Assembly (NCBI GenBank): GCA_943736015.1 | Contig: OX031070.1 | Location: 24,821,673-24,885,672, forward strand | Length of the DNA stretch: 64,000 bases | Source: Tridacna crocea | Taxonomy: Eukaryota; Mollusca; Bivalvia; Cardiida; Cardiidae | Direction: 5' to 3' | In this document: positions 22,201 to 40,900 of the stretch, piece after piece | Position numbering within the stretch: position 1 is the first letter of the stretch | Layout: each line of letters opens with the position of its first letter | Program-made: the position numbers and the translations under genes | The notes under the pieces: generated by a model | Seen by the model: only the letters and a program-made list of their open reading frames with translations | Told to the model about the DNA's origin: nothing | Database searches by the model: none

Positions 22201-25200
22201 GAGTGATGGTGTATCTGCACAGTGCATTAGATACATACTTTTTCGTGATATAGTCTAACCCTTCCACAAATGACAAATTTTAGACTGTTCCGAACTCAAA
22301 GTGTTTGCAGATGACAATTTTAAATTTGATGAGAATGGCAGAAAGTTTTCAGATAGGCTAGAAAACACTGTGGAAAAAAGGAGTAATTGCTCGTTACGAG
22401 CAATTTCTCCTTTTCCCACAGTGTTTTCTAAAGACTTGTACTGCAGACACGTAAAAACCAGAGCTTGTTTGGGAAAGAGTTAAAGAAACTAAAAGGTGAA
22501 TAAGTAATGACTTTTTTTACTTAACCTTTTTGACTAGAAATATCGTGGTGACGCAAAAAGAACTTTTTTGGAGGGTAATTCTGACGAATTGCGGGCTGAA
22601 TAACGTTAAATGTGTACTTTCTTAAATACACTATCAGTCAGTTAACACTGGTATATAAAAAGAAAATTACATGTGATATTCGTGAAAAAAAAAACCTACG
22701 ATAGTTTCGGGAGAATGTTAAATGTCCTTTAGTTCTTTTTCAGAATCAAATACATGTACAAATTGGAGGGGGTCGGGACAATGTTGTCAGTAACAACGTC
22801 ATGTATAACGCTGCATTATACAGCATACAAGTGGACGGTAGAGGAGTCCACATAAACCGTAATTTAAATAAAACATTACAAGGCAAATTACACGTAAGCA
22901 CCTCTTTTTTTTTTTGTTTTTACCAGGCTTTGATATTCTTGTGTATGAATGCATATGGACGTTTGAGATACAAAAATAAGTAGCCTACCTATGCCAACAA
23001 GATTTCTAATAACTCAACTGATCTGAGACGAACTTTTACGTACGTTGTTTTTATGAAAAATAGATTTTTTTCATAATATATCTTAGAGAATGCAAATATA
23101 TTTATTACGTTTAGGCATGAAACCAATAAATTATTAGTGTCTTTTGAGACTGACGCTAAAGGAATTAAACGGATTCACTATGAAGAAATAGGCACTTGTA
23201 TTAATGAAATGATATTGACTGTTAAGAGGTGGGTGAACTTTAATTTCCCGTCGGTTGATGTTTGACCTACCTGATTTCCAAAACAGCTCTTTTTTTTTTT
23301 AACCAAACAATACTATGCTATTTTTCCCATAAAGAAGATTGACTTAGAAAACAAGCTGGAGAAGAGAAAAAAGCTGGTAAACATATTGTGAATTCTATCC
23401 ATGGAAAGACAAAGAACCGTCATTGAGCCACGTATTGATTTTTGTATGCAGATACAACAGTCTCTTAGTATGGTAAGGAGCTGACTTACAAAAAGTATTT
23501 GAGCGACGCTTTGGCAAAGTACAGTAACAAAACAAAAGGTTTCGACTCGTGTCAGCCTGCCCAGACTCTACAGGCTGACCCTAGTTGATACTTTTCGAAG
23601 ATTCATTAAATTCCCTGTCGATAGTTTATGGTTTGTTTAAGGGTATTTTCTCCAAACTTTAATTTCAGCGGGTACCTTACACCGGCAGTCTTTGGTCTGC
23701 GCGATACCCAGAGTTGGCGAGAATTCTCTCCGAGAATGAAACTTTCCCAAGAGGTACAAGTCGGTGATAATTGATACTATGATATCGTGCTTATTTTTCA
23801 TTCGACCGTTAAAAAGAATTCTTGGAATAGTTCCTTTGTATGATAGCCTCTATTCAAAAAAGAAGTATATGTTACACAGCATTGAATTTGTATATTAAAT
23901 TTTCATTTACTTGAGTTTCAGAATTACAGATTTATCAAATCAGCCTGAAGAAATGAACCGAAAACAAGGATATGTTATGCACCGTTATGTTAGGGCCCTG
24001 TCTTCAGAAGCTTGGAAATATGGTGTTAGGTTGAAGACATAATTATGCTTCATGTTATTTCTAAAAAACAAAATCATAAACTTTTACGTTTGACGCAAAC
24101 TTCACCATACATATCATGACGATACAAGGATAAAGCTAAAAACAACAGAGAATCTATCAATGACTGATATTTTGCTCAACACCTTCCAATTATTTTACAT
24201 AATAGACTGTATTCCAAATCACATTTTTTCTTAGTTTCAGGGTTGATTTATTTTGTTAATTTTTTTCATCAGTTAAAATCAATGAATCCCTGTAAGGATG
24301 ATGTCTGTAAGGACATGTGGAGAAAAATACAATATAGTTCAAAAATACATCAGACGTTAACAAGGTCATCCTCTCATGTATATCTACAAATTATGAATGC
24401 CCACGAGTAGGTCACTTGTTTCAGAATAAGGATTGTAAGTGTGCTTAATTTTGAAGGACTAATGAGAAAAGACGTTCATATACGGTTCTGTGCAAAGTCT
24501 AAAATCAAGATAATCTGTTTTGGGTCTATCGTCAATCAAGCTATGATGGTTCTTTAAACTCAAGGATTATATTTTTAAAAACTTTATGTTGTGTTTGATT
24601 GTAAGTGTGGTTTTAGGTCTTCATTGAGACAAAAAGAAGTACTATTTCGTTTTTCTTATAGGAAATCAGATTCACAAAAACATCGTCTATAAAGTAGGAC
24701 AGAAAGAGGATATCCATGGCCTTGCTTCCTACATCAAGGACCCGATTTATTATAACATCACTGATACTGGATATGTGAGTTATTTTTTGTCAGTCCTGAT
24801 TTACTTTGAGATTTTTCGGGATTTAGGTCCACAGGAAGCAATTTTCATTTTTTGTGTGTGTGTGTAAAATTTCACCAAAAGGTCGTATTAATGAGTTATA
24901 TTGGAGGTATATTTAGATGAGTTGTCTTTATTACTTTTGTAAACGTCAATGTCTATCATAGGTTGTTTTTAGAAAGTCAAATATCGTGATGTTCATCATA
25001 TCATCGAACTTTTTCAATATCTAGATTATTCCGTTGCAAAGCTTGAAATGGTTTCGTTATTTATGTTTTTACCATATCATTCTTGCATGTTTTGTTATTG
25101 TAAATGCCTTTTTTACAAGTATATAGACTGTATCTAATGCGGTTTCAGTTTACATGGCTATAGAAATTAGTGAAAAGACCTATACTGGTTAAACAAATTT

Positions 25201-28200
25201 GTTGCATGTGTAATAAAATTTAGTAAAATTTAGTCTCTGTAATACCGTCTTTATAGTCCTATGGAATTGGTGACCATTTTGACGTCAAAGCTGGGGATTT
25301 AAGATTACGGTGTCACGCTGCTACATGGGCCAATCATGTCAATTTTCAACAAGTGGTATCACCCAATGAAGTTGGTCCTAGGTATGACATTGGACCACCA
25401 TTTCAAAAGACAGGTGCACATTTTTTTTTCATACGAATTAACTTGTTAAAGTTTAAATACCTGCTACGTTGTTTGACGTAGCTTCTATTTCTTCCAAAAC
25501 AAACGTAAAGAATCTTTCAGGTGAAATTCTGCTTACTTAATCGTTACATGCATAGTATTCAGAAATAGCGCATGTCGCCAAAGGGCATAATTCAGTAGCC
25601 GCACACTATACGAAAGTCTTGTTTTCTCAAACATTGTCGCTCTTTAAAAGGTATAAGATTGAAATGTATTGCATTTTCAACTCTATGAATCATTATTTGT
25701 CACAGAAGATGAATTTTGTGTCGTTGTATGTAAAAATATCTTTATGTTACTAATTGCCACGTTTGTAGATAACGATTTGGTTGCACAGAAAACGGAATTT
25801 GGACTGTAATATTTTATCAAACACCGCCTGAAACGGCTTCTAAAGTAAAGTGTCTAATTTTCAGAAGCAATTGACAACTAACCAAATAGACTGTATATTT
25901 CTCGTTTTAGTACGTCTGTTTTCTAAGAAATGTCGAAGTATTGTCATAGCCCTAAGTTTTTTTTTCTTTTTTGTCGTCTTCGTCATCCTACAAAAACTTA
26001 TTACTTCAAACTCTGGCAAGTTGTTAACTATCAAAGGGAAAACCAATACGACAAGGTCAGAGAAGCAGAAGTATTTTTGAAATAGGTATGCTTCTTTCGT
26101 GATTAAGAATTTTTACTGAAAAATGAAGCCACTGCAGACGAGTATCAGCGCTCACAGGCACTGCTGTTGTTTTAGCCAAGTTGCTTTTGTTACTCTATAG
26201 TTCGTCACACAGTTCATCTGACTGGTTCCGCCAGTATCTGTCCCACAGTGGACCCAGCTAAAGCTTCGCCAATGCCTGCATATCTCCCTGACGGGTCCGG
26301 CCAAACACCATTATCAAAAGTATACGACGAAGGTATGGTATGTTTTACCCGAATATTGCGATACAATTTCTTTATCTTCGGGATTTTTTGTACATTTTTT
26401 AGCTCACCTGAGCACAAAGTGCTCATGGTGACATTTTGTGATCGCCCAATGTCCGTCGTCCGTCGTCCGTCGTCCACAATTTCTTTCAACATCCTTTTCT
26501 CCTAAACCACTGGGCCAATCTTGATGAAACTTGGCAGGGATGTTCCTTGGGTGAAGCTCTACCAAAGTTGTTCAAGAGATTGAATTCCAGGCATAACTGT
26601 GGTTGCCATAAAAGGAAAAAAAAAGCAAAATCTTTGAAAATCTTCTTCTCTGAAACTAGAAGGTGCAGAGCTTTGATATTTGGTATGTAGCATCTCCTAG
26701 TGGACTTCTACCAAGATTGTTCATATGATGCCCCTGGGTCAAAACTGGCCCCACGCCGGGGGTCACAAGTTTGAAACATAGGAACAAAGAAGGAAAACTT
26801 TAAAAAACTTCTACTCTGAAAGTAGAAGGTGCAGAGCTTTGATATTTGGTATGTAGCATCTCCTAGTGGACCTCTACCAAGATTGTTCAAATGATGCCCC
26901 TGCGGTCAAAACTGACCCCGCCCCGGGGGTCACCAGTTTGAAACATAGGAACAAAGAAGGAAAACTTTAAAATTCTTCTTCTCTGAAGCTAGAAGATGAA
27001 GAGCTTTGATATTTGGTATGTAGCATCTCTTAGTGGACCTCTACCAAGATTGTTCATATGATGCCCCTGGGGTTATAACTGGCCCCGCCCCGGGGGTCAC
27101 ATGTTTTAAACATAGGAACAAAGAAGGAAAACTTTTAAAATTCTTCTTCTCTGAAGCTAGGAGGTGCAGAGCTTTGATATTTAGTATGTAGCATCTCCTA
27201 GTGGACCTCTACCAAGATTGTTCATATGATGCCCCTGGGGTCATAACTGGTCCCGCCGAGGGGGTGACAAGTTTGAAACATAGGAACAAAGAATGAAAAC
27301 TTTAAAAATCTTCTTCTCTGAAACTAGAAGGTGCAGAGCTTTGAAATTTGGTATGTAGCATCTCCTAGTGGACCTCTACCAAGACTGCTCATATAATGCC
27401 CCTGGGTCCAAACTGGCTCTGCCCCAAGGGTCACAAGTTTGAAACATAGGAACAAAGAAGGAAAACTTTAAAAATCTTCTACTCTGAAACTATATGGTGC
27501 AGAGCGTTGATATTTGGTATGTAGCATCTCCTAGTGGACCTCTACAAAGATTGTTCATATGATGCCCCTGGGGTCAAAACTGACCCCGCCCCGGGGGTCA
27601 CCAGTTTGAAACAGGAACAAAGAAGGAAAACTTCAAAATTCTTCTTCTCTGAAGCTAGAAGGTGAAGAGCTTTGATATTTGATATGTAGCATCTCTTAGT
27701 GGACCTCTACCAAGATTGTTCATATGATGCCCCTGGGGTTATAACTGGCGCCGCCCTGGGGGTCACAAGTTTGAAACATAGGAGCAAAGAAGGAAAACTT
27801 TAAAATTCTTCTTCTCTGAAGCTAGGAGGTGCAGAGCTTTGATATTTGGTATGTAGCATCTCTTAGTGGACTTCTACCAAGATTGTTCATATGATGCCCC
27901 TGGGGTCATAATTGGCCCCGCCCCGGGGGTCACAAGTTCGAAACATAGAACAAAGAAGGAAAACTTTAAAATTCTTCTTCTCTGAAGCTAGGAGGTGCAG
28001 AGCTTTGATATTTAGTATGTAGCATCTCCTAGTGGACCTCTACCAAGATTGTTCATATGATGCCCCTGGGGTCATAACTGGTCCCGCCCAGGGGGTGACA
28101 AGTTTGAAACATAGGAACAAAGAATGAAAACTTTAAAAATCTTCTTCTCTGAAGCTAGGAGGTGCAGAGCTTTGATATTTGGTATGTAGCATCTCTTAGT

Positions 28201-31200
28201 GGACCTCTACCAAGACTGCTCATATAATGCCCCTGGCTTCAAACTGGCTCTGCCCCAAGGGTCACAAGTTTGAAACATAGGAACAAAGAAGGAAAACTTT
28301 AAAAATCTTCTACTCTGAAACTATATGGTGCAGAGCGTTGATATTTGGTATGTAGCATCTCCTAGTGGACTTCTACCAAGATTGTTCATATGATGTCCCT
28401 GGGGTCAAAAATGGCCCCTCCCTGGGGGTCACAAGTTTGAAACATAGGAACAAAGAAGGAAAACAGAATTATTTGGCCTTGAACTTTGATATTTGGTATT
28501 TATCTTCATCGTAGACCTTTTCTGCTTAGTACTCAGGTGAGCGATATAGGACCATCATTGCCCTCTTGTTTTTGTGTGTGCCTTTGTTAAAGATAGGACC
28601 AGAGTTGTAAGTATCAGTAACCTTTATGTATTATGCAGGGGTAAAAGTTTTCCGTATTGTGACGGAATCATACTGTATGACAAATATATGATTTTGTCTT
28701 CTATTCAGTGACAGGTGAACATTCTGTCCTAAACGAATGCGAGCCTTTTAGACATCCTGCTGCATAGACGGATGTCGTAGCCTTCGGTCGAGAGAGCCTG
28801 CTATTGCTTTTTCGGAGAGAGTACATCACAATAAGGCGGCTACTCAGACTATACCTTTTTCGACCTTGCATTATTGAGCACGTTGGGTATTACCATAAGT
28901 CACACCAACATGGTTAACATGTCGCAGGAAACAAATCACTGTACCTGTTGTGTACTCTTTCAGAACGAACATTCAGTGCTTTAGTTTTGTTCTTTCATCA
29001 CAGGTTGCTGGCTTAACGTCACAAAATGCACCAACGATCCAGATGCGGTCGGTACCTATAGAGATATGTATGGGGAAAGGTTACATAACGCCGATGAGAA
29101 TGAGGTAGCTTGTCTACACGGCGCTGTCACTCAGTGGCATTTCTGTGGTTCGAAACCTGACGAGCCTGTCACAGCTATCTATGGACCTACAGGTACAGTA
29201 TGCCGATGAGAGGGCGTGGATTATAAACTCCACAGCCCTACCCTAGAACTACTAAAATTCATGAAAAAAAAAATGAGTTTGTCCGTCGTCATATTATCAA
29301 AATAGTGTTATAAGCGACAAAAACACGCTCCAAACAAATAATTAAGTGATTTGCAGTCGTCTGCGGTCAGGAACAGCATGCAAGGCTTGAATTTACCCCG
29401 TCTGCCTATGTTTGTTTACATTCTGTGTCATAAAGGGTCGAAGAATCAATTGAAAATGCTTGTACGAGGGGTGTTCGAAAAGTTTCGGGACAAGTGCCGC
29501 CATTCTTCTATATTTTGACATTTTTTAATGAGTTTTTCGATAACGATAGCTACAACCATATTCTATAAGTTCGTTGAAACAAATAAACGAAGATACACGA
29601 AACGCGTGATGTATTGTCACCATAGCAACGTCAAGTCGATGTGAGCGGGGCACCTTGATGCACCGAATAAAAGGTTTGTCTTTACAAGTGTCTGAAATAG
29701 TCATGGTTATTCAAAATACTTCAGGGTATGCTCCATGCACCTCTGATGCTTATGTAAGCACGAATTAAAAATGATTTTGAAGTCTGTTGATGGAATGTTC
29801 CTTATACATTCCCTGACTACGACGGGAAGATCATCGATGTCGTCAAAACAGTGACTGCGTCAGTAACGCTTGATAGCGCTGAATAACCAAAATTTACACG
29901 GTGCGAGTCCGAGGAGTATGGTGGGTGCTCAATAGTGTTACTCTATCAGCAGGTACTTTCTCGGTAGTTGATGAAGTATAAGGTGTGGCGTTGTTGTGAT
30001 GAAAGTAAAATGCGCCGGATTTTTCTGGTCGTTTCTCCTATACAGCCCTGATCAACTCATGTCAGTGCACCTGAAACGAGCTTACGGATCAACCTATGAA
30101 TCTATATACACTCAAAACATATGTTTATAAATTACTGCTTTCACCAACCAATCCTGTCATCATATAAAATAAGAATATACTTTTATGTATAATGTAGTTA
30201 AAAAAAAAATATACGTTCGAGTAATACTGTGCTGTGACTGTCTTCCCCATCGGTAGTGTGTGGCAGACAATAACTCCGTTCATTTCAATAAAATAAAACG
30301 TTTCGCCATTGCTTTTGTAGGCAAGGGTGAATTAGGGTTTTTTCCACACAGAGCAGTCTTGCTTGGTCTCTGGATCATACAAACCAATCCAAGTTATATC
30401 GGCCGTAATAATGAATGCCGAGAACCTGTCACCGCGTTCTCTGTGCTGTTTCAGGAAAGCCTTACTCACTGAAGCTTTTTGATGGCAAGTAGTAGACGGG
30501 GTACCCTGCAGGCGAATACTTTTGTCATGCACAATTCAAAAACATATAGGAGTGCTTATTGTGATCAATACTTGCAATTAGAAAGAAGATATTTTGTGAA
30601 GTGACGTCAAGGTGCCCCGCTCACGTCGACTTGACGTTGCTATAGTGACCATTCATGACGTGTAGCATATATATTTGTTTATTTGTTTCGATTTACATAT
30701 AAAATACGGTTGTAGCTATTACTACCGAAAAAATCATTGAAAAATATTAATAAATACAAGAGTGACGCCAAACGTCCCGAAACTTTTCGAACACCCCTCG
30801 TATATGAGATAAATATGCTCGAGCACGTGTTTCGATCGATCCATCCATAATACCATCCAGCCATCCAACGGCACAAAACTCGCTTATCATAACATTAAAG
30901 GGGCTACAACATTCGGTGGTGATGGTTGTTTAATCGCAACATACGGCTGTCCGAAACATGGTGGACCTGCTGATGGACACGTGGTACCAGGCAAATTCTA
31001 CAAGGAAACTCATGCGAACGCGGCACTTGATCAGGAACATTGTTTGGCTCGTGCACTTCCCATCTGGCACTATTGTGGCTCTTTTGCGAACCATCCTGTT
31101 ACAGCAATATACAGACCGACGGGTAAGTAATAGGTTGGCGTAGCTGGTATGCAGATATATTACTATATATAGAAAAACAGTCTTTGTGTATAACTCATTA

Positions 31201-34200
31201 TACAATATCCTTCATTCTTTTTTGCTAGAGTTTAGGTACAGCATGGAATTTTTGGCAGATAGATATGCATGGTTTCAGATAGAAATTAACAATTTTCCAG
31301 CTTGTACAAAAAGAACAAAATGAAATGTGGGCTGTGAATAGGAAAATCATGACGTACCATACAGATGATTGTAAGGTTGATAGCAGATCTGTGCTCATAT
31401 TCGTTTCTTCATGCTTAATTGCAGTCTGTGATTAGCAGACGGTATTGTAGAGTATGATAAGACGATCGTGCACAACATCTGAAAAAAAGATAAGGGTTTT
31501 TTTACTGCAATATTTTTCGTTTTATATAAATCAACATTAATAAGAGAAAGGACTAACTCAAATTATGGTACTATATGTAGATACAGAAAAAAGATTACAG
31601 TAAGAAGTAAAAACCCCTAAAACTACAATGAAAATGGTCTTATCTTCAGAAAAAAAAAACTCCTCTGAAACCGCTGGTCAGATTTTGAAATAATTTCACA
31701 GAGTTGATCCTTGGGTGACCCTTTTCAAAAATTGTTCGGGAAATTTTGATCCGTCAAAAAATATGGCTCTGGTGAATGGGGGCTACTTGCACTATAGGGA
31801 AATGAGGAAATTCTTAAAAAATTTTCTTCTCTGAAACCGATGGTCAGATTTTGAAATAATTTCTCAGGGATATTCCTTAGGTGACCCTTTTCAAAAATTG
31901 TTCGCGAAATTTTGATTGGTCAAGAAACATGGCTCTAGTGAATGGGGGCTACTTGCACTATAGGGAAATGAAGAAATTCTTAAAAATTCTTCTTCTCTGA
32001 AACGGCTGGACAGATTTTGAAATGATTTCACAGAGATGATCCTTGGGTGACCCTTTTCAAAAATTGTTCACAAAATTTTGATCCCTCAAGAAACATGGCT
32101 CTGGTGAATGGGGGCTACTTGCACTATATGGAAATGAAGAAATTCTTGAAAATTCTTCTTCTCTGAAACCCCTAGTCAGATTTTGAAATAATTTGACAGG
32201 GATGTTCCTTGAGTGATCCTTGCTCTTGTGAATGGGAGCTACTTGCACTATATGGACATGATGAAATTCTTGAAAATTCTTTTTCTCTGAAACCACCGGT
32301 CAGATTTAAAAAAAAGATTCCGAAATATTCCTTGGGTGACCCTTTTGAAAACTTGTTCGTAAATTTTGATCCATCAAGAAACATGGCTCTCGTGGATGGG
32401 GGATACTTGTTCTTATACAGAAATGAAGAATTCTTAAAAATTCTTCTTTTTGAAACTGATGGTCAGATTTCGAAATGAATTTTACAGGTGACCCAGGCCT
32501 CCTAGTGAAACCTTTAAAACCTTTAAAAACCTTTAATTTCAGAGCAAACCTTTAAAACCTTTACATTTCCCCAGAAAACCTTTAAAACGCCAAAATAGCC
32601 TGTAATTCTGACTCAAAACCTTTATATTTGCTCTGACTGGTTGCCATGCTAGCTTAAAGCAAGTAATGGATTTTGTTCTGCATTTTCCCTTCTTTTATGT
32701 GTAGTTAAACAATGCTGCTTTTGTTTCTTTCATCTTGAGTTTTTCAGAATGCTGTTGTGTTCACCAGACTACCATGCAGTAGCTGTTTGCAGTAGTGCAC
32801 TCACCAAAACCATGGATGGTGTCATGTTATCAGCATTATGTACCATGGACCTGGATGCTTGAAATGGTAATTTCAGGTCTGGTGAGATGTTTGCACTACT
32901 GTAATGATGGACAAGGTTTGGTGAAGCTACAGCATTCTGAATAAAGGTGATGTAGATCCTACACTGTAAAATAGGAGCTATGTATGATATAAATATGCAG
33001 AGAAAATAGGTATACACATTAAATAAGGTATGTATTATATTGCATAATTCAAACAGTATATAACATCAAAAAATGACTTTGGTATGACTGTGGGTTTAAT
33101 AAAGAAATGAGAACTTCGACGAAAATAGCCTTTATTTACTCTTTATTTTTTCGTATTTTACACTAATAGGCCTTTATTTTCATACATTGGGGCCTTTATA
33201 AAAACCTTTATTTTTGTTTTAGCCTGCTAGGAGGCCTGGGTGACCTTTTGAAAATTGCTTAGCAAAATTATAAGTTTGGTTCCAATGTTTCAAAACCTCA
33301 AAAAAAAAGGCTATGGTGATCTCAAAAATTCAGGTGAGCGATCCAGGGCCATCTTGGCCCTCTTTTTTAGATTTAGCAGCATGGTCTATATTTTCACTTC
33401 ACTGGAATTCTGGTTCTAAACTTTCTTGACTATCAACTTTTTTTTAGATAATCTGGTAAAAAGCTAACTTGAATTCTACATTTGAGAGCTTCTGGTTTAA
33501 AGTTGTCTTGATTTTTAACCTTTTGAGATATTTGGCAAAAATCCGGTAAACCGATGAACTGGTAAACACCAAATTGTTTTTTTCTTTTTTCAAAATTTAG
33601 AGATACCTGGCAAAAAACTATCAATTTTCATTATAAATAGGTATTTTGACCAAAACGCATCAGGTTTTTCAGCATTTGGAGATATCCTTGTCAATAAATC
33701 GTCTTGATTTTTCGTTTTCTAGGTATTGGGACCCAAGCAGTCATGATTCCGAATATTTTGAACTATTCTGCCCGAAACCATTCCGGATTTTCGTTGTAAT
33801 GAAATGATATTCTGCCGAATACCATATAGAAATTCAGTATTATGGGATATTTTGGCAGATTTCTGTCCTGACATACGAAATTATTTTTTCTTTACTGAAA
33901 GCCGTTTTGCCTTTCAACGTCTTACAACATGGGCCAGAACCTAATTTAAACTTAAATTACGAGATGTTTTGGCGTAGACTTGATCCAAAATTATATTCAG
34001 AGATATTGTGCCAAGATGCTCTTTTGAACTTAAATATCCTATTTAATTCTGATCCAGATAGACCCCTTGGTTTTAAATGTTATGGAATATTCTTTACTTT
34101 CAACAGTTTGATGTATTCTTTCCGAAACCCATCTTTGGTTTAGTTCTTTGAGAGATTCTGCCAAAAACCAACTAGATTTCCAACATTTCATCACATTTAA

Positions 34201-36074
34201 AAAAATCTTGATTTTCAATGTTTTGAGAACTTTTTGCCAAAAGCCATCTTGAGTTGAGATATTCTAGCCATAGGCCTGTTTAGAATTCAATAACATTAAG
34301 TTTTCTGACCAAAACCTGCCCAAACATAAACAATTTTGCCAATTGCCATAGTGAATGCAATAGAATGAGATATTATGACAAAAAAAAATGAACTACGTCT
34401 TGGCTTTTCAATGTTATAAGTTATTTCCACAATGACTTCCAACACTTGGAGATATTCCTGTTTAAAATCATTCTTACTTTTAGCCAAATTAAATATTTTG
34501 GCAACATTCAGTCTATGTTCAGTTTGAATTGAAATATTTAGAACAAAAAATTATATTAACCGGCATCAGTTTGAAATACTTTTCAGATGTCATTGGCACT
34601 GAAGTCCTGAATGTCAATATTTACGGACATTCAAACCAAAAAAGTTCTTTGCAGTCAAGCCTAAAGTAAGCTTAGAAGCCAAATAGTTGATAGATTTTTT
34701 TACTCATTATCCTATTGTCCAGGTGCTGTCAGAACGGCTGGTGCAGGATGCTGGATAAAAATGGAAAAATGTCCAAAACAACCCAGTTATAAACCGCTGT
34801 TTTATGATGCTGAAGGAGCTACTAACGCCCAAACTGGTAAATCTGTTTGTCTAGGTCGGATTCATTATCTCTGTCTTTCTTCCCTCTATCCTTTTGTCCT
34901 TTTTCCACTCTTGGTGCGGCAAATGTTGGAAAGAAGCAGGAAGCTTTGATAAATGTTTTATATGGTACTGATCAAAGAAACATGAAAATAACATGATTAG
35001 GTGTACTGGCATTAGCGAGTTCATAGGCGGATCCAGAGGAGGGGACCGGGGGTCCGGACCCCCCCCCCCCCCTGGAATTTTGGCAAAAATGTGGTTATTG
35101 GATTCGTGAGTGGGACTGGTTTGATATTGCACAGCATTTATGTAAAATACAGTCATAAATTTAAAAAGGGGTTCTAAATATGGAGACATCCTGTTGGTTA
35201 GAACTGGAAACGTTGACTTTTCTTGTAAACGGCTTATATCCACTGAAATCCGGAAATCAAAGTATCATATATTAAGACGAGTGCGTTTTCGTTGGGACCC
35301 CCCCCCCCCCCCCCGAGAAAAATGTCTGGATCCGCGCATGGAGTTAATAAAACTGATGTTGAAAAGGGTTTTTGATATCTTATGAAATAACCAATTGCTT
35401 TAATATGAATTTTCGCATTCAATGTACCTGTTTTAAAATTAAATCAAATGGCCTGCAACACGTGAAAAGGGACATTCGGACATCTGCGTAAAGTGTCGTC
35501 TCGGATCAGCCTGCGCAGTCCGCGCAGGCTAATCCGAGACGGCACTTTCCGTTTTAATGCAATTTCTGTTTTGCGCATGTCTACTGTAGCACAAAATCTA
35601 ATGTAGTCGTAAAGTGCCGTCTCGGATTAGCCTGCGCGGACTGCGCAGGCTGATCCGAGACGACACTTTACGCAGATGTCCGAATGTCCCTTTTCGCGTG
35701 TTGCACACCAAATATGACACAATGCACTTATATTCTGTGCATTATCCATCATACCATTATAGCTGCACAAAATATACTAGCATGTCTAACAATTGACTGC
35801 CTCTAGAGGTAGAATGGTCCTCTCGGAAATGCAGAATAATTACAAATAGTTTGGACCCAGTTCAGTTTGTTCACATTTTTTTTTTTTTGCAAAAAAACAT
35901 GGAATCGAATCCCTTTTCAGGAGGCATGAATCACTTATTTTACTTGTTACAGACGTTCTAAAAGAGGTTTGTTTGACCCGTGCCGAGTACTACTGGATAA
36001 AGTGCGGATCAGACCGCCAGTATCCGGTGACTGCATACTACCGACCCACTACAGAATCAAAGACTTACCCGTAG
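1131..36074 (+). CDS. Gene A: secreted right-handed beta-helix protein with three C-terminal Cys-rich modules (23 exons, complete)
   Basis: Complete gene; exons join(1131-1237,1721-1797,6936-7048,8172-8261,9545-9685,10528-10643,12390-12496,13484-13560,14762-14877,15581-15705,16546-16638,19511-19683,20256-20351,21471-21599,22744-22893,23669-23753,24662-24774,25257-25413,26201-26332,29004-29192,30901-31122,34723-34836,35953-36074). They sum to 2844 nt, keep one open frame and use GT-AG introns throughout. The 947-residue product has a signal peptide (about 1-20), a beta-helix body with many short N-rich turns such as GNDHIIEYNHIHH (residues about 30-690), a S/T/P-rich linker (about 689-733) and three modules with the pattern C-x6-C-x27-30-C-x10-C (about 733-947). 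The likely role is an extracellular carbohydrate-binding or carbohydrate-cleaving protein. That is inferred from fold-type motifs; no catalytic residue was identified. The start at 1131 gives the same exon 1 length as the paralogue at 37816. An ATG at 1127 is out of frame. Confidence 0.9.
1420..1649. repeat. Foldback MITE, family 1 (intron 1 of gene A)
   Basis: Starts TTAACCCTTTCC and ends GGGAAAAAGTTAA, with a central hairpin whose arms run AAAACATTGTGGGAAAAGG and back. The apex is GCTGGTAACCAGC. Good full-length example of the commonest repeat in the window. Confidence 0.85.
1721..1797 (+). CDS. Gene A exon 2: beta-helix N-terminus
   Basis: Residues 36-62, with the motif NLPLKTIARAITFAS that normally follows the YVSP.G.D.N.G motif in beta-helix proteins. 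The acceptor is TCTGTTTCAG and the donor GTAAGT. 77 nt, same length as the paralogous exon at 38259. Confidence 0.9.
3351..3450. repeat. Short interspersed repeat with GAACGTGCAGTCTGATC core
   Basis: TTAACCCTTTGG... GAACGTGCAGTCTGATCC... Similar pieces occur near 15723-15910, 37974-38062 and 61125-61207, each with the TGCAGTCTGATC or CAGACATTCTGTCTGA core and CTAGATC-like boxes. Low-copy, unclassified. Confidence 0.5.
4384..4600. repeat. Degenerate foldback MITE, family 1
   Basis: Retains CTCTTTACGAAAC, the GACTTGCCCAAATTGGAAG box and a worn hairpin centre (GGTTGGTTACTAG). Much more diverged than the other copies, so an older insertion. Confidence 0.55.
4908..5165. repeat. Foldback element with about 60-bp inverted ends
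   Basis: Left arm CATCCTCGGATACCCCGGGG... and right arm CCCCGGGGTATCCGAGGATG are near-perfect inverted repeats of about 60 bp, reaching in to GACCCCTGGGACAATT. The interior is about 140 bp and non-coding. A GT run and a G run precede the left end. Single copy in this window. Confidence 0.8.
6936..7048 (+). CDS. Gene A exon 3: beta-helix
   Basis: Residues 62-99, including LFIDLLPGYHDL, which is nearly identical in the paralogue (LFIELLPGYHDL). 113 nt; the gene B exon is one codon longer. The preceding intron is 5.1 kb, the longest in gene A. Confidence 0.9.
7871..8099. repeat. Foldback MITE, family 1, GTGGCAAAAGG variant
   Basis: Begins TTAACCCTTTACTCCATAGA and ends GGGGTACAGGATTAA. The hairpin arms are GTGGCAAAAGGTGAAATTGC and its complement. 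The flanks differ from the main type, and the closest relative is the copy at 19916-20147. Confidence 0.85.
8172..8261 (+). CDS. Gene A exon 4: beta-helix
   Basis: Residues 100-129, beginning TGGRRIPVSSLR. The exon is 90 nt with phase 0 at both ends. The paralogue reads TGGRRIPASNFK at the same place. The acceptor follows TTTCTTTACAG and the donor is GTAAGT. Confidence 0.9.
8894..9102 (-). mobile_element. tRNA-derived SINE, copy 1
   Basis: On the minus strand it reads TGGCTCAGTGGTTAGG (A-box-like) and GGAGTTCGAATCCCG (B-box-like), spaced as in a tRNA, followed by a non-tRNA body with ATTTATTCATTTGTTTC. Nearly identical to 9216-9422. Confidence 0.75.
9216..9422 (-). mobile_element. tRNA-derived SINE, copy 2
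   Basis: Almost identical to 8894-9102, same orientation, differing at only a few positions by eye. A 113-bp spacer with unrelated sequence separates the copies. It ends about 120 bp before exon 5 of gene A. Confidence 0.75.
9545..9685 (+). CDS. Gene A exon 5: conserved FFNGKPLRLARWPNE motif
   Basis: Residues 130-176. Contains LNITKYGS and VFFNGKPLRLARWPNE, a motif I recall from bacterial right-handed parallel beta-helix proteins of GH141-like type. The exon is 141 nt, phase 0-0. The donor reads GTTGTG, weaker than the other donors in this gene; the reading frame and the paralogue (donor GTCGGT) support it. Confidence 0.88.
10528..10643 (+). CDS. Gene A exon 6: beta-helix
   Basis: Residues 177-215: GFIDITGVPDG at the start and FLDDVWVYGFW at the end. 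116 nt, ending in phase 2. The paralogue has GFININGIPDG and HLDDLWVYGYW. Confidence 0.92.
12126..12245. repeat. Small palindromic element with hammerhead-like centre
   Basis: Imperfect inverted ends (AATTGTAATTTTTAATTATA and TATTATAATTAAGAATTAT) flank ACTAGAAGAAGGCGGTTGTA/CCGCCGAAAGC. The centre has a GGCGGT/ACCGCC stem bounded by GAAGA and GAAA, the layout of a hammerhead core; the core bases are not a full consensus match. Confidence 0.45.
12270..12389. repeat. 24-bp minisatellite, five units
   Basis: Five direct repeats of about TCATTGTAATGATATGTTGT plus AACG, starting at 12270, 12294, 12318, 12342 and 12366. The last unit ends ACAG instead of AACG, and this AG is the splice acceptor of exon 7. 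Confidence 0.85.
12390..12496 (+). CDS. Gene A exon 7: beta-helix
   Basis: Residues 215-251, starting YYAWSERAFHVNTLD. 107 nt, phase 2 to phase 1. The donor is taken as GTGTCT after GGACAG because it gives the same length and phase as the paralogous exon (44417-44523). The acceptor AG closes the last unit of a 24-bp minisatellite. Confidence 0.85.
12899..13019. repeat. Partial foldback MITE, family 1 (left half)
   Basis: TTAACCCTTAACTC... GTGGAAAAAGGAGAAAATAC... to the hairpin apex (GGTTACCAGC) and part of the right arm. The rest of the right half is missing. Confidence 0.65.
13053..13310 (+). mobile_element. tRNA-derived SINE
   Basis: GGGTAGCTCAGTGTCAAGCG (A box) and GCAGGTTCGATACCC (B box), then a body with GGCGATTTTTCGCTTCTCAC shared with the SINE at 41981. 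Not a working tRNA gene: the acceptor arm is not conserved. Confidence 0.75.
13331..13395 (+). repeat. 5S rRNA-like segment next to a SINE
   Basis: TTTAAGCAACGT... GTTAGTGCCTGGATGGGTGA CC matches the internal control region and 3' half of animal 5S rRNA (TTAAGCAACGT, TTAGTACTTGGATGGGTGACC). Only part of 5S is present, so this is a SINE head or pseudogene fragment rather than a gene. Confidence 0.6.
13484..13560 (+). CDS. Gene A exon 8: beta-helix
   Basis: Residues 251-276, ending GGYFRFINILSELDEP. 77 nt against 89 nt in the paralogue: the first part differs in sequence and is four codons shorter, while the second half is nearly identical. The donor is GTAAGT. Confidence 0.85.
13678..13906. 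repeat. Foldback MITE, family 1, GCTCATAACGAGC apex
   Basis: TTAACACTTTCCCAAACAAG ... GTCGTTTGGGAAAGGATTAA. The hairpin apex is of the GCTCRTAACGAGC type. Same subtype as 15157 and 39456. Confidence 0.85.
14250..14345. repeat. Partial foldback of the GGCTAAACC/GGTTTAGCC family
   Basis: Contains CTGATCGGCTAAACCGAATG followed by GATTAGCCAATGAGAAACTG, the palindromic centre seen in the elements at 37478 and 55562. Ends are missing. Confidence 0.5.
14484..14712. repeat. Foldback MITE, family 1
   Basis: TTAACTCTTCACCACACGAG ... GTAGTAATGGGTTAA, with TAGACTGGTCCAAATTGAAA in the left arm and a GCTGGTTACCAGC apex. It ends 49 bp before exon 9 of gene A. Confidence 0.88.
14762..14877 (+). CDS. Gene A exon 9: EYYVDKNTGNLYMYIP motif
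   Basis: Residues 277-315. GEYYVDKNTGNLYMYIP matches the ..GEWY.D...G.LY.YPP signature I know from GH141-like beta-helix proteins. 116 nt, phase 0 to phase 2, donor GTACGT. Confidence 0.9.
15157..15383. repeat. Foldback MITE, family 1, GCTCGTAACGAGC apex
   Basis: TAAACCTTTCCCAAACAAGC ... GTCGTTTGGGAAAGGATTAA. Apex GCTCGTAACGAGC is a perfect inverted repeat. Confidence 0.88.
15581..15705 (+). CDS. Gene A exon 10: first clear parallel beta-helix coils
   Basis: Residues 315-357, with NVIFSGFILEACRQKGIY followed by NNILIQNMEVRNTG, a typical succession of PbH1-type coils. 125 nt, phase 2 to 1. Confidence 0.92.
15965..16226. repeat. Foldback MITE, family 1, with a short internal duplication
   Basis: AACTCTTTACCAGACGACAA ... 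GTGGTAAAGGTTTAA. The right side repeats TTCCCACAATGTTTTCAAGA plus GGCTTC twice, which makes the copy longer than usual. Confidence 0.85.
16546..16638 (+). CDS. Gene A exon 11: beta-helix coil
   Basis: Residues 357-388: DFGVYFNSPSTGCTVSKSVF. 93 nt, phase 1-1. It aligns with NFGIYFSGDSRNCYISRTVV in the paralogue. Confidence 0.9.
16837..16955. repeat. CAGCCTGCGCAG-core palindrome family, partial copy
   Basis: GGCCTGCAACACGCCAAAAG ... TCAGCCTGGGCAGCCCGCGC AGGCTAATCCG. Same 5' end as the full copy at 35447. Confidence 0.75.
17100..18378. other. Intron 11 of gene A, non-repeat stretch
   Basis: AT-rich without coding signal or a known repeat. Around 17925-17960 there is a CRE-like TGACGTCA in a CG-containing patch followed by AAAATGGAGGATG. 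Otherwise I see nothing. Confidence 0.4.
18379..18509. repeat. CAGCCTGCGCAG-core palindrome family, right half
   Basis: TACTGTAGAACAAAATCTAA ... GATTAGCCTGCGCTGTCCGC ... GTGTTGCAGGGCAAA. Matches the right half of the element at 35447-35706. Confidence 0.75.
19004..19234. repeat. Foldback MITE, family 1
   Basis: TTAAGTCATTACCACACAAT ... GTCGTTTGGTAAAGAGTTAA; apex GCTTATAACCAGC, so one side of the apex has drifted. The left end resembles the partial copy at the right edge of the window. Confidence 0.87.
19511..19683 (+). CDS. Gene A exon 12: beta-helix coils
   Basis: Residues 388-445, with LEAGGNTVEDCKFYQFSREG and GVGNLVRYNEIAYSQATAIQ. These N-rich, roughly 23-residue coils are typical of right-handed beta-helices. 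173 nt, phase 1 to 0. Confidence 0.93.
19916..20147. repeat. Foldback MITE, family 1, GTGACAAAAGG variant
   Basis: TTAACCCTTTACTCCATAGA ... ATGGGGTAAAGGGTTAA, arms GTGACAAAAGGTGAAATTGC and complement, apex GCTCGTCACGAGC. Sister of 7871-8099. Confidence 0.87.
20256..20351 (+). CDS. Gene A exon 13: beta-helix coils
   Basis: Residues 446-477: GNDHIIEYNHIHHMCQNVSN, then CAAIL. GNDH.IE.NH.... is the most recognisable PbH1-like turn in both paralogues. 96 nt, phase 0-0. Confidence 0.93.
20628..20839. repeat. Foldback MITE, family 1
   Basis: TTAACTCATTACCAAACGAC ... GTGGTAATTGGTTAA. The hairpin lost about 15 bp at the apex (AAATGCCAGCAATTT). Confidence 0.85.
21033..21262. repeat. Foldback MITE, family 1
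   Basis: TTAACTCTTTACCAAATGAC ... GTGTGGTAAAGAGTTAA, apex GCTGGTTACCAGC. One of the best-preserved copies, with matching ends. Confidence 0.9.
21471..21599 (+). CDS. Gene A exon 14: beta-helix coils
   Basis: Residues 478-520: RGNKIRYNIIHDTQEFYPG, ending ITNNVFYN. 129 nt, phase 0-0. Confidence 0.93.
22022..22080. repeat. CAGCCT palindrome family, remnant
   Basis: GTCAGCCTTCGCAATCTGCG CAGGCTTACATGAGTCGAAAC: only the palindromic core and a few flanking bases remain. Confidence 0.55.
22255..22483. repeat. Foldback MITE, family 1
   Basis: CTAACCCTTCCACAAATGAC ... GCTTGTTTGGGAAAGAGTTAA, apex GCTCGTTACGAGC. Same flank type as 40102. Confidence 0.87.
22744..22893 (+). CDS. Gene A exon 15: beta-helix coils
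   Basis: Residues 521-570: VQIGGGRDNVVSNNVMYNAA and IQVDGRGV. 150 nt; the paralogue is one codon shorter. GGGRDN...NN.MYNA is conserved in both. Confidence 0.93.
23500..23600. repeat. CAGCCTGCCCAG palindrome family, remnant
   Basis: TCGACTCGTGTCAGCCTGCC CAGACTCTACAGGCTGACCC, with TACTTTTCG downstream. Core only. Confidence 0.5.
23669..23753 (+). CDS. Gene A exon 16: W..RYPELA motif
   Basis: Residues 571-599: YTGSLWSARYPELARI, then FPRG running into GN. I recall a W..RYP.L......P.GN motif from bacterial beta-helix proteins at this position. 85 nt, phase 0 to 1. Confidence 0.9.
24662..24774 (+). CDS. Gene A exon 17: late beta-helix
   Basis: Residues 599-636: GNQIHKNIVYKVGQ, ending YYNITDTGY. 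113 nt, phase 1 to 0, donor GTGAGT. Aligns with GNQITKNIIYNEP in the paralogue. Confidence 0.92.
25257..25413 (+). CDS. Gene A exon 18: end of beta-helix
   Basis: Residues 637-689, with DHFDVKAGDLRLRCHAATWA and VNFQQVVSPNEVGPRYDIGP. 157 nt, phase 0 to 1. From here on, all exon boundaries are phase 1. Confidence 0.92.
26201..26332 (+). CDS. Gene A exon 19: Ser/Thr/Pro-rich linker
   Basis: Residues 689-733, including SASICPTVDPAKASPMPAYL and PDGSGQTPL. Low complexity, rich in S, T, P and A: a likely flexible and possibly O-glycosylated spacer between the beta-helix and the Cys-rich modules. 132 nt, symmetric phase 1-1, identical length in the paralogue. Confidence 0.88.
26401..28570. mobile_element. 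Satellite-bearing non-autonomous element
   Basis: Starts AGCTCACCTGAGCACAAAGT and ends with CTCAGGTGAGC ... GCCCTCTTGTT. The inverted GCTCACCTGAG/CTCAGGTGAGC pair brackets about 11 tandem units of about 166 bp (GCAGAGCTTTGATATTTGGT recurring near 26664, 26831, 26998, 27166, 27333, 27499, 27664, 27827, 27993, 28161 and 28328). A CCGTCGTCCGTCGTC run lies near the left end. No protein is encoded. The architecture recalls bivalve non-autonomous Helitron-type elements with internal satellites. Confidence 0.8.
26650..28470. repeat. Tandem array of about 166-bp units
   Basis: About 11 units. Each contains GATATTTGGTATGTAGCATC, then GTGGACCTCTACCAAGATTG, ATGCCCCTGGGGTC and GTTTGAAACATAGGAAC. Neighbouring and alternate units share variants, for example CCCAAGGGTCACAAG and AGCGTTGATATTTGG in units two steps or more apart, suggesting multi-unit duplications. 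Confidence 0.85.
28574..29003. other. Intron 19 of gene A, right part
   Basis: Non-repetitive sequence between the satellite element and exon 20; nothing recognisable. Confidence 0.4.
29004..29192 (+). CDS. Gene A exon 20: Cys-rich module 1
   Basis: Residues 733-796. GCWLNVTKC opens the module, then AVGTYRDMYGE, then C-x10-C (CLHGAVTQWHFC) and GSKPDEPVTAIYGPT. Four cysteines spaced C-x6-C-x27-C-x10-C. A self-contained 189-nt phase 1-1 exon, so it can be duplicated without breaking the frame. Confidence 0.93.
29465..30800 (-). mobile_element. Dead mariner transposon
   Basis: Inverted ends CGAGGGGTGTTCGAAAAGTT/TCGGGA and the complement, flanked by TA on both sides (29463-29464, 30801-30802), the Tc1/mariner target duplication. 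On the minus strand, 30532-30332 encodes a piece of transposase (ITADITWIGLYDPETKQ, cf. the TGDETW..YDPETK motif). A later piece near 30030-29900 reads FHHNNATPYTS, where the usual HHDNAPAH has lost its catalytic Asp. A stop follows. Clearly inactive. Sits in intron 20 of gene A. Confidence 0.85.
30901..31122 (+). CDS. Gene A exon 21: Cys-rich module 2
   Basis: Residues 796-870. GDGCLIATYGCPKHGGPADG, then C-x10-C (CLARALPIWHYC) and GSFANHPVTAIYRPT. Spacing C-x6-C-x30-C-x10-C. 222 nt, phase 1-1; the paralogue is four codons longer. The acceptor (AACATTAAAG) lacks a long pyrimidine tract, and a mariner remnant ends 100 bp upstream. Confidence 0.9.
31655..33366. mobile_element. Second satellite-bearing element, left end missing
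   Basis: At least six units of about 165 bp (CTCTGAAACC.CTGGTCAGAT near 31662, 31831, 31995, 32161, 32286, 32450; one unit shortened) followed by CAGGTGAGCGATCCAGGGCC ATCTTGGCCCTCTT. It shares the period and terminal sequence with 26401-28570 but not the unit sequence. It is split by an insertion at 32494-33238. Confidence 0.75.
32494..33238. mobile_element. Non-autonomous hAT-like insertion
   Basis: Ends CAGGCCTCCTAG and CTAGGAGGCCTG. The 7-bp GGTGACC is repeated directly on both flanks (32487-32493 and 33239-33245), which restores the surrounding satellite unit. AAACCTTTAAAACC repeats lie at the left end and CCTTTATTTTTG repeats at the right. 745 bp and non-coding. hAT-type 8-bp duplications are the nearest match. 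Confidence 0.75.
33430..34600. repeat. Degenerate 50-60-bp minisatellite
   Basis: A worn tandem pattern of GAGATATTnTGCCAAAAACC followed by ATCTTGATTTTCAATGTTTT recurs many times (for example near 33520, 33600, 33680, 33800, 34005, 34180, 34230). AT-rich, in intron 21 of gene A, directly after the satellite-bearing element. Confidence 0.6.
34723..34836 (+). CDS. Gene A exon 22: Cys-rich module 3, first half
   Basis: Residues 870-908. AGAGCWIKMEKCPKQP carries the C-x6-C pair, then LFYDAEGATNAQT. 114 nt, phase 1-1. Unlike modules 1 and 2, this module is split by an intron between its two cysteine pairs. Confidence 0.92.
35029..35337. repeat. Short inverted-repeat element with GGCGGATCCAGA ends
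   Basis: Left TAGGCGGATCCAGAGGAGGG, right TCTGGATCCGCGC; C runs lie inside both ends (35059-35072 and 35299-35314). About 310 bp and non-coding. A common animal MITE type by its ends. Confidence 0.65.
35447..35706. repeat. CAGCCTGCGCAG-core foldback, full copy
   Basis: Left end GGCCTGCAACACGTGAAAAG and right end CTTTTCGCGTGTTGCA are inverted. Each half has its own palindrome (GATCAGCCTGCGCAGTCCGC, and GATTAGCCTGCGCGGACTGC), so it is a foldback of foldbacks. Confidence 0.85.
35953..36074 (+). CDS. Gene A exon 23: Cys-rich module 3, second half, and stop
   Basis: Residues 908-947. CLTRAEYYWIKC gives the C-x10-C pair, followed by GSDRQYPVTAYYRPT and a short tail ESKTYP before TAG at 36072-36074. 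A poly(A) signal follows 42 nt downstream. Confidence 0.92.
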
Positions 36075-37815: not shown

Positions 37816-37922
37816 ATGTCGGCTATGAACGTTATCTGGTGTTTGTATGTACTGTTACCACACTGTATTGCCAAGGACATTCATTTCTTTGTCGATCCAA
37901 ATGGAGCCGATACTAACAATGG
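37816..37922 (+). CDS. Gene B exon 1: signal peptide and cap motif
   Basis: Residues 1-36. Hydrophobic leader MNVIWCLYVLLPHCIA, then HFFVDPNGADTNNG. 107 nt, phase 2, donor GTATCT. Confidence 0.88.
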
Positions 37923-40900
37923 GTATCTATTTTGTCTTATCAAGATAGTATTATTTAACACAAAAACAGTTTTAGTCCTTTGAGCACAAATATATCTTCG
38001 CACGCAGTGTACGTAAATATTGAACTTCAAAGAACGTGCAGTCTGATCTTGGATCTACACTCTCCGAGACGGTGAAATTCTCTTGACGTAAAAATCTTTG
38101 ACATTGCGATAGTTATTATGTTTAAATTATGCTATATTATGTTAAATTGTTTTACAGTTGACTGGTGATTATTATTTAATTGAAGTCGGACCAAACGTTT
38201 GTCTAATTTATCGGTGTATTGCAAATACTACTCAACACTTTGATTTCTACTTTTATAGCCTGGACATTAACCATCCGGTTAAGACACTTGCCAAAGCCGT
38301 TGCTCTTGCTTCAAGTTCAGCATACTCCGGCAATAGTAAGTCTTTACGTACCATAGGGCTAATTAATTTGATCTGATCTAGCTTCTTTACGAAGCTTAAA
38401 CACTCATGTACGTTTGGTTAAGAATATTATGTGAGTGACTTATACATGGCTTTTCAGGCTGACGTGGATCGAAACTATTTTTTTTCTTGTGAATTTCCAG
38501 CTTGTCCAAACATGATTATGTGATAACTCGCTTTGTATCATTCAAATAACCCCCCACCCCCTACTTTGCCAGAATATGGTTCATTAACGTACATATACAA
38601 AATACAATTGCCAATAGATTTTGTAAAAGATACTTTTCAAAAACGGAAAAAATGTAAAAATAAAAGATTTGGAACAAAAGGACAGCTCTTATCATTTTGC
38701 TAGTAATCCAATCAAAAAGACACAAATAAGAAAACAAAATTGGCAAAATTTAACAAAAATACTCTTAATTTTTCAGATTTATTCATAGAGCTGTTGCCAG
38801 GATATCATGATTTAGAGAGTAAACTTCATATAGGTCAACACCATGGCAAACTGCTTACAATACGGTCTTACAATGGACAGGAGGCACACGTCGTAAGTAC
38901 GATCATTTTTTTCAGTCTTAAAGTGCACGTAATTCTAATCAGAGGGTTGCTTAATTTTAACCTATTACCACACAGTCGCTACTTTTTGACGCCTCAGAAA
39001 AAGAAGCCTTAATAAAAAACATTGTGGAAAAAGGAGAAGATGCTGGTAACCAGCAATTTCTCCTTTTCCCACAATGTTTTCTTCTCATAACAAAACAAAT
39101 TTCAAATTTTCAGTCACTTTTTATGATGTCGTCTGCAGATGCTTTCGATTTGAAAGAATGTCGTTAGGTAATGAGTGAACAAAATAAAACAGGCAATTTC
39201 TGGATGAAAAAGTACGGAACTCATTCAGTAATACTGTGTGAAAAGGGGGCTAAATGCCTCAGACGGATCTAGGTCAAATCTTTGTTGAGTTTGGCCAAAT
39301 TTCCGCATGTCAAAGGACCAGTGTACATCATGAATCCCTCGGTTGCCAGCGATACAAAATGGATTTTGTAGATCAGTAATTATATGATGACTTGCTTGGT
39401 ATAAGCACAGGCCTTTGAAGCTCTATTGGTCTATCACAGAACAGTAAAATTGTCCTTAACCCTTTCCCAAACAAGCCGTGGGTTTCTTTTACGTATCCGC
39501 AGTAAAAGTCTTTTAAAAACACTGTGGGAAAAGGAGAAATTGCTCGTAACGAGCAATTTCTCCTTTTCCCACAGTGTTTTCTCTCCTTTTTGACAACTTT
39601 CTGCCATTTAAAATTGTCGTTTGGGAAAGGGTTATTAAGACAATATACAATAGAGAGGGAATCCCAAGTGTTATTTATAGTAACGGTGTCCGATCATGAA
39701 AAATTTCTTTATCCCTTTATAGACCAATGGAGTTTCAGAGGCCTATGGTATAAGCACCATGGAGATGTATTGAACTCCCTTTTGCCAGAGTATTGCTGAA
39801 TTGTAATTGAAAAGCTCGTAAATAACATCATTATCTCACAAAATATCGAACTATATGTATATAGACTTGAGCCGTGCTCTGTGAAAAAGGGGGCTTAATG
39901 CATGTGCATGTATCGACCCAGGTCAGCCTGCGCAGTCCGCGCAGATTGACCTTGACCGAAACTTTTCGATATTGGTTATTTTTTCAGTAAGTCAAAGGAT
40001 CAGTCTACCTCATGATCAGGTCAAGTTGTTCAAAAAGTAGCTATGAATGGATCCATAATTATGTGATGACTTGAGCTGGTATGAGGTATCACAGTAATGC
40101 ATTAACCCTTTCCCAAATGACAAACTAGACTGTCCCTGCACTCAAAGTGCTTGCAGATGACAATTTTGAATTTGATGAGAATGGCAGAAAGTTTTCCAAT
40201 AGGCTTGAAAACACTGTGGGAAAAGGAGAAAAGGAGCAATTTCTCCTTTTCCCACAGTGTTTTCTAAAGTCTTGTACTGCAGACACGTAAAATCTAGGGC
40301 TTGTTTGGAAAAGAGTCATTCTGAGTAGAGAATTTGAGATGGATTCAGTTCTTGTTTTATCTCTGAATATCGCTGGTGAAACTGCATTAAAAGAAATCAA
40401 AGCACAACTGATTTTTAAAAAAAAATAAAACAGATTCGAAAATTGAAATAAAGGTATTATAATTATTATTTAGCCATTAATACTAATACCGAATTCGCCT
40501 ATAAAACAAAAGCTGTTTTGTCTAATAACTGACTGATTCAAGAGGTAGAATGGTCTTGGATGTAATATTCCTGCATTTGTTTGAATTTGATTGAATACTT
40601 GCCATTATGCCTTGTTAAAATGCCTTACAGATCTGCGAATGTGAATGTATATTGTATATTTTCATATGACAGGGTCACCATTTATATACATGTATACATG
40701 TATGTGTGTGCATCCAGATAGGATTGTTCCCATCTATCTCATTACCAAATAGGCAATGTGGGGAGAGGGAAATACGCTGTTATCTGGCTTTTTCCTCTCC
40801 CCACACTGTTCTTCTATGTTATTAATGAGCTATTTTTAGAATTGAGGGTACGATTCAGGTATTTCAGACTATATTTAATATTTTCATTATAATAGCTCAA

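What the first reader, a model, noticed from the sequence alone, without database searches (positions are those of the whole stretch)
29004..36074. Unrecognised four-cysteine module, three copies at the C-terminus
In gene A, exons 20, 21 and 22+23 each encode one copy of C-x6-C-x(27-34)-C-x10-C. Each begins GC(W/L), has an aromatic-rich C....A....W..C segment and closes with GS....PVTA.Y.PT. Gene B repeats this at 58717, 60752 and 62579. The 6- and 10-residue spacings hold in all copies that can be read, while the middle loop varies. I cannot match this to a named domain. Two cysteine pairs and secretion suggest a small disulfide-stabilised fold, perhaps a carbohydrate-binding module.
Basis: partly seen in the sequence, partly recalled or inferred. 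Interest (0 to 1): 0.75.

Follow-up and report, generated by a model that had tools for sequence, protein, structure and literature searches.

The report
Unnamed four-cysteine module on beta-helix proteins
Two neighbouring animal-type genes each encode a probably secreted, sugar-enzyme-like protein whose tail carries three copies of a small cysteine-rich unit that matched no catalogued domain in the libraries searched and may serve as a sugar- or matrix-gripping tail.

Summary
Gene A (23 exons, 1131-36074) ends in three tandem modules; gene B (22 exons visible, 37816-62692) has the same three, the last cut by the window end. All five complete copies keep C-x6-C-x(27/30/34)-C-x10-C and are true homologues (z 14 to 52 against shuffles), with phase-1 borders. 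Copies pair by position, so triplication predates gene duplication. Pfam gave no match for five single copies; NCBIfam, PHROGs and PDB gave only matches I judge chance. Fold models were too weak to use (pLDDT 62 and 49). Spread in other animals could not be tested. Gene B keeps two aspartates present in 18 of 18 bacterial relatives; gene A has Asn at the first, yet its modules stay constrained. I favour an extracellular binding module, probably for a carbohydrate; binding is inferred.

The parts
29004..29192 (+). Gene A exon 20: module A1, Cys 6-27-10, phase 1-1
30901..31122 (+). Gene A exon 21: module A2, Cys 6-30-10, phase 1-1 (acceptor with a weak pyrimidine tract)
34723..34836 (+). Gene A exon 22: first half of module A3 (first C-x6-C), phase 1-1
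35953..36074 (+). Gene A exon 23: second half of module A3 (C-x10-C, PVTAYYRPT) and stop codon
58717..58905 (+). Gene B exon 20: module B1, Cys 6-27-10, phase 1-1
60752..60985 (+). Gene B exon 21: module B2, Cys 6-34-10, phase 1-1
62579..62692 (+). Gene B exon 22: first half of module B3; second half not found before the window end
1131..26332 (+). Gene A exons 1-19: hydrophobic N-terminus, GH141-like right-handed beta-helix core with an inserted domain, and linker (residues 1 to about 732)
37816..57282 (+). Gene B exons 1-19: same architecture, same intron phases, 53% identical to gene A over 732 aligned positions
20256..20351 (+). Gene A exon 13: strip with Asn465 where gene B (Asp470) and 18 of 18 aligned bacterial relatives have Asp
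51170..51265 (+). Gene B exon 13: strip with Asp470 retained (SDCGAIHTGRDWTY)

Best explanation
The module is an extracellular domain of 64-71 residues (GC to PTG/PTT), probably held by two disulfides, that was added as phase-1 exons to the end of a GH141-like right-handed beta-helix protein, triplicated, and then copied with the whole gene. Its most likely job is binding: the three copies tether the beta-helix to a glycan or matrix target, as tandem carbohydrate-binding modules do on secreted glycosidases. Gene B keeps both candidate catalytic aspartates and may be an active enzyme. Gene A has Asn at the first and may be a non-catalytic binder that kept its modules. Shown here: gene models, homology of the copies, phases, constraint, relation of the core to GH141-type proteins, the Asp/Asn difference. 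Inferred: secretion, disulfides, ligand binding, enzyme activity.
For: Five complete copies with fixed 6- and 10-residue spacings and strong pairwise similarity; 13 invariant columns, four of them Cys. Every internal module exon border is phase 1. The core is a beta-helix: PF13229 E 1.1e-13 (A) and 1.2e-09 (B); core homologues in 26 of 64 genomes of one bacterial phylum, best 33% identity and E 2.1e-74; several of those places also carry GH141_M over its cut-off (L018 at 27.2 bits with neighbours counted, L019 at 51.4, L016 at 37.9); profile hits to PDB 9rx2 (5e-44), GH141 BT_1002 5mqp (4.9e-20) and a xylosidase 3vst (2.2e-5; its GH120 label is recalled). Modules are at least as conserved between genes as the core: 62% of 174 against 53% of 732 positions, pN/pS bootstrap median 0.31 (0.24-0.40) against 0.36 (0.33-0.41). 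Module positions pair between genes, 61, 67 and 50%. Gene A has Asn465 where 18 of 18 bacterial relatives and B have Asp, but kept the modules.
Against: No ligand evidence. Both fold models are low confidence (pLDDT 61.6 and 49.3), and Foldseek gave only 2 matches, E 6.8 and 7.8. GH141_M scores below its cut-off in gene A (E 0.035) and is not listed at E<=1 in gene B. Gene B also departs from 32 of 99 residues invariant in 12 bacterial homologues, so it may not be an active enzyme. Synonymous sites are saturated. Conserved aromatics may be buried core residues rather than a sugar platform.
Confidence: 0.5

Rival explanations
1. The module is a protein-protein or extracellular-matrix assembly domain (multimerisation, shell, mucus or cuticle scaffold), and the beta-helix is a structural or binding scaffold rather than an enzyme.
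For: Small Cys-rich tandem modules in phase-1 exons are typical of extracellular matrix proteins (established knowledge). Gene A lacks a candidate catalytic Asp, and both genes depart from many residues invariant in 12 bacterial homologues, 39 (A) and 32 (B) of 99.
Against: Gene B retains the Asp pair 40 residues apart and the GRDWT and LDD motifs. Two of the core's three solved relatives are named as glycosidases (5mqp, 3vst); the best one, 9rx2, is named only as a parallel beta-helix repeat protein.
Confidence: 0.3
2. The module is a divergent member of a named domain (a C-type lectin, WSC, PAN, chitin-binding or similar Cys-rich family) that sequence profiles fail to reach.
For: Only 5 complete copies were available, all from this window; the fold is unresolved.
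Against: No Pfam family listed for five complete copies at E<=10, and for the joined three-module tail only LEA_3a at E 0.24. No Foldseek match with E<=0.001, though the model is too weak for that to count for much.
Confidence: 0.15
3. The modules have no ligand and are a maturation, stability or solubility tail of the beta-helix.
For: Always C-terminal here; in gene A the last copy runs almost to the stop codon.
Against: The fetched bacterial loci show no module (best E 0.25), so the fold does not need it; three copies kept in both genes suggest avidity.
Confidence: 0.05

Closest known systems
GH141 glycoside hydrolases (BT_1002, PDB 5mqp; Xyn141E; Wf141 endo-fucanases)
   Same: Right-handed parallel beta-helix with a domain inserted ahead of the main helix; core profile reaches 5mqp at E 4.9e-20; gene B has two Asp 40 residues apart in the strip where the six aligned GH141_M-positive loci L014-L019 also have an Asp pair, 36 or 40 apart; D523 and D564 of BT1002 are 41 apart.
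   Different: GH141_M is below its cut-off in A and not listed in B; gene A lacks the first Asp; three C-terminal modules, not found in the bacterial loci examined, are added; no activity known.
PDB 9rx2 'Parallel beta-helix repeat protein'
   Same: Best solved relative of the core profile, E 5e-44.
   Different: The match covers the core only; source and function are not told by the tool, and no paper of the library holds '9rx2'.
Carbohydrate-binding modules of multimodular glycosidases
   Same: Small domains in tandem at the end of a glycosidase-like core, as a matter of architecture.
   Different: No sequence match to any Pfam family, whatever CBM families it holds; binding not shown.

Membership tests
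Any Pfam or NCBIfam domain (for the module) | Profile score at the curated cut-off | tested here: not met
   Pfam: 0 families listed at E<=10 for 5 complete copies of 6 (the half copy B3 was not scanned). NCBIfam: 2 sub-cut-off matches to one copy, E 0.11 and 0.15. Joined three-module tail in Pfam: LEA_3a E 0.24, below cut-off
Any domain with a solved structure (for the module) | Sequence-profile or fold match in the PDB | tested here: inconclusive
   Profile: a covalently connected cytochrome c555 trimer at E 4.2e-4 with no single stretch passing, and 7f2y at E 0.096, both judged chance. Fold: 2 matches, E 6.8 and 7.8, on a model of pLDDT 61.6
Carbohydrate-binding module | Binds a carbohydrate | not testable with these tools
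   No binding data
Carbohydrate-binding module | Belongs to a carbohydrate-active enzyme | tested here: inconclusive
   Core related to GH141 BT_1002 and a xylosidase; activity unknown
GH141 | Right-handed parallel beta-helix | tested here: met
   PF13229 E 1.1e-13 (A) and 1.2e-09 (B); 5mqp in the profile search
GH141 | GH141_M insertion domain over its cut-off (27 bits) | tested here: not met
   A 14.4 bits, E 0.035; B not listed at E<=1. The four bacterial homologues scanned score 14.7 to 20.2 bits, also below it; one core homologue, L018, just passes with neighbours counted, 27.2 bits
GH141 | Catalytic Asp pair (D523 and D564 of BT1002) | tested here: inconclusive
   Gene B Asp470 and Asp510, gene A Asn465 and Asp505. 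The 5mqp alignment did not extend to this strip, so the mapping rests on the 6 GH141_M-positive loci L014-L019 and the similar spacing

The most novel reading that the evidence does not exclude
The module founds an unrecorded family of animal glycan-binding domains. The gene pair is an animal GH141-type fucan-degrading enzyme (B) with a catalytically dead, lectin-like sister (A), and would give a gene to the molluscan fucoidanases that a 2025 review still lists as unclassified.
Probability: 0.1. Interest if true: 0.7.

Novelty: new variant of a known kind. Interest (0 to 1): 0.48.

Why it matters
If the module is a glycan-binding domain it adds an unnamed animal family to the catalogue. It also ties an animal-type gene to a glycosidase fold whose family GH141 a review counts as 98% bacterial (PMC10154630, passages). 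GH141 now includes endo-fucanases (PMC12786026, passages), and fucoidanases extracted from the molluscs Lambis and Patinopecten are listed as not classified (PMC11943901, passages). If the animal is a mollusc, which I did not establish, the pair A/B would be a concrete, testable candidate. The contrast between an Asp and an Asn sister also gives a natural test of what the modules do without catalysis.

Tried and rejected
A prokaryotic origin of the module: the only genome contigs locus was an 11-residue match in what reads as an ABC-transporter ATPase (VTAIYGPSGAGKTT; family name recalled) and was rejected. 0 of 64 genomes of that phylum match the module profile (the tool warns that without a positive control an empty answer shows nothing). 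The module HMM on 1552 ORFs of the 21 fetched loci gave 17 matches at E<=10, best 0.25 (that same chance locus L001), against 7 hits in the window at E<=0.01 as control. No match in plasmids or phages; 6 pattern matches in viral contigs, none a relative. Not tried: PADLOC, and a second viral pattern.

The PDB match of the module profile to a covalently connected cytochrome c555 trimer (E 4.2e-4) was rejected as chance: no single stretch passes, and I infer that the score adds up repeats of one weak match. The core's single-sequence PDB match 2hyd (E 0.097) was set aside, and the two-sequence core profile found nothing; only the profile with 10 bacterial homologues added reached GH141.

Fold search was run on the A1 model only; the B2 model (pLDDT 49.3) was not searched. 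Five peptide strings of the module occur in 0 papers of the library. 'GH141' with 'mollus' gave one paper, where GH141 belongs to gut bacteria (PMC11387067, passages). A six-term search for a molluscan glycosidase with such a module found none. The listings gave nothing on the module and no paper of theirs was opened; of the listings I opened PMC10154630, PMC12786026 and PMC11943901, passages only.

The strip used for the clustering test (A residues 460-510) was chosen after seeing the alignment, so its P of 0.003 is only indicative. My first two scripts for the GH141_M-positive loci missed some of them (L014, L015 and L019; L014, L017 and L019); one search aligned all six.

Full report
What is there. 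Two genes lie head to tail on the plus strand. Protein comparison of the window with itself gave paired exons in the same order, and splice sites chosen for consistent phases gave gene A, 23 exons and 947 residues (1131-36074), and gene B, 22 exons visible (37816-62692), with the same intron phases in all 22 shared exons. The first ATG choices and the exon 8 acceptors are the least certain points.

The module. The copies are exon 20, exon 21 and exons 22+23. Spacings are 6-27-10, 6-30-10 and 6-27-10 in gene A, and 6-27-10 and 6-34-10 in gene B, whose third copy is cut. All 10 pairs of the five complete copies are related far beyond chance, also when cysteines are held in place (z at least 13.1). 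The pattern occurs in 5 of 1642 stop-to-stop ORFs, one of them apparently unrelated, against a mean of 0.115 in shuffles. Every internal module exon border is phase 1, the class expected of shuffled extracellular domains (established knowledge). Copies pair by position between genes: 61%, 67% and, on the half copy, 50%, against 15 to 44% for pairs at different positions. So the triplication came before the gene duplication.

No name. Pfam listed nothing at E 10 for five of the six copies (its filters drop most matches above about 0.1); the joined tail gave LEA_3a at 0.24. NCBIfam and PHROGs gave only weak scattered matches. In the PDB a profile gave a covalently connected cytochrome c555 trimer (4.2e-4, no single stretch passing) and 7f2y at 0.096, which I judge chance. 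AlphaFold on four sequences suggests strand, strand, helix (residues 30-49, spanning the C-x10-C pair) and a short last strand for A1, at pLDDT 61.6, and strand, helix, strand for B2 at 49.3. Foldseek found 2 matches, E 6.8 and 7.8, for the A1 model. If the helix is right, its two cysteines are too far apart to pair with each other, so they would bridge to the two on the first strand; that is inference from a weak model.

The host protein. The remaining 730 residues or so hold a right-handed beta-helix (PF13229). It has clear bacterial relatives: 26 of 64 genomes of one phylum, best 33% identity, E 2.1e-74. That phylum is Latescibacterota by the title of the record that led there. Of the matches listed there, 12 proteins were aligned to the core in scripts and 10 of those 12 in alignment A5. 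These proteins end near the core's end or carry other tails; the module profile matches none of the 64 genomes, and the module HMM finds nothing better than E 0.25 in the 21 fetched loci. A profile with these relatives reaches PDB 9rx2 (5e-44), GH141 BT_1002 (4.9e-20) and a xylosidase (2.2e-5). The GH141_M domain scores below its cut-off in gene A and in the four bacterial homologues scanned, and is not listed for gene B. In the same 64 genomes GH141_M passes its cut-off in 9, and some of those places are also core matches, with core E from 3.0e-52 (L018) to 3.9e-4. I therefore call the core GH141-like, not GH141.

The active-site strip. BT1002 needs D523 and D564 (PMC12786026 and PMC10154630, passages). 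The 5mqp alignment did not reach this region. In an alignment with the six GH141_M-positive loci L014-L019 and the 12 homologues, two columns are Asp in 18 of 18, spaced 36 to 40 residues; BT1002's pair is 41 apart. Gene B has Asp at both (470 and 510); gene A has Asn465 and Asp505. Of 99 columns invariant in the 12 homologues, A departs at 39 and B at 32; A alone departs at 10, five of them in this strip (Asp465Asn, Gly467Ala, Gly472Thr, Arg473Gln, Asp506Ser); B alone departs at 3, none there. Asp506 is the second Asp of LDD, not the candidate catalytic one. The clustering P is 0.003 for a strip chosen after the fact. Against an active enzyme in B: it too lost 32 conserved residues, several of them histidines, and in this strip alone it departs at 4 of 13.

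Constraint. Between A and B the modules are 62% identical over 174 positions and the core 53% over 732. pN/pS (bootstrap median and 95% range) is 0.31 (0.24-0.40) for modules and 0.36 (0.33-0.41) for the core; the ranges overlap, and synonymous sites are saturated, so true ratios are lower and not measurable. The modules are thus kept about as strictly as the core, in a pair where one core seems to have lost a catalytic residue.

How it probably works. A secreted beta-helix protein is anchored to its target by three disulfide-bound modules. The N-terminus is hydrophobic (Kyte-Doolittle maximum 2.44 in A and 2.09 in B over 11 residues); no signal-peptide predictor was available. Tandem copies fit avidity binding. 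A carbohydrate target is the likeliest, given the core; a matrix protein target is the main rival. The substrate is open: GH141 members act on RG-II fucosyl linkages, xylan and fucan.

Limits. No animal genome or proteome was searchable, so the family's spread, and whether someone has already named it outside Pfam, NCBIfam and PHROGs, are unknown. 'Not in print' rests only in an open-licence library.

Verdict.

Noticed in passing
20256-20351 (gene A exon 13) against 51170-51265 (gene B exon 13): Gene A has Asn465 where gene B and 18 of 18 aligned bacterial relatives have Asp; five of ten A-only departures from conserved residues fall in this strip and its neighbour exon, so A may be a non-catalytic sister.
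   Followed up: yes
26613-28464, gene A intron 19: Tandem array of about 11 copies of a 167-bp unit, 90% matches.
   Followed up: no
31663-32221, gene A intron 21: Tandem array of 3.4 copies of a 166-bp unit; the period is close to that of the array in intron 19.
   Followed up: no
about 35440-35780, gene A intron 22; related translated stretches near 16.8 kb and 18.4 kb: A palindromic repeat element recurring on both strands in the introns.
   Followed up: no
about 29440-29700 and 30570-30890, gene A intron 20: The two ends of a stretch of about 1.3 kb match each other on opposite strands, as terminal inverted repeats of a transposon would.
   Followed up: no
1-64000: No Rfam family reaches its gathering score in the window.
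   Followed up: no
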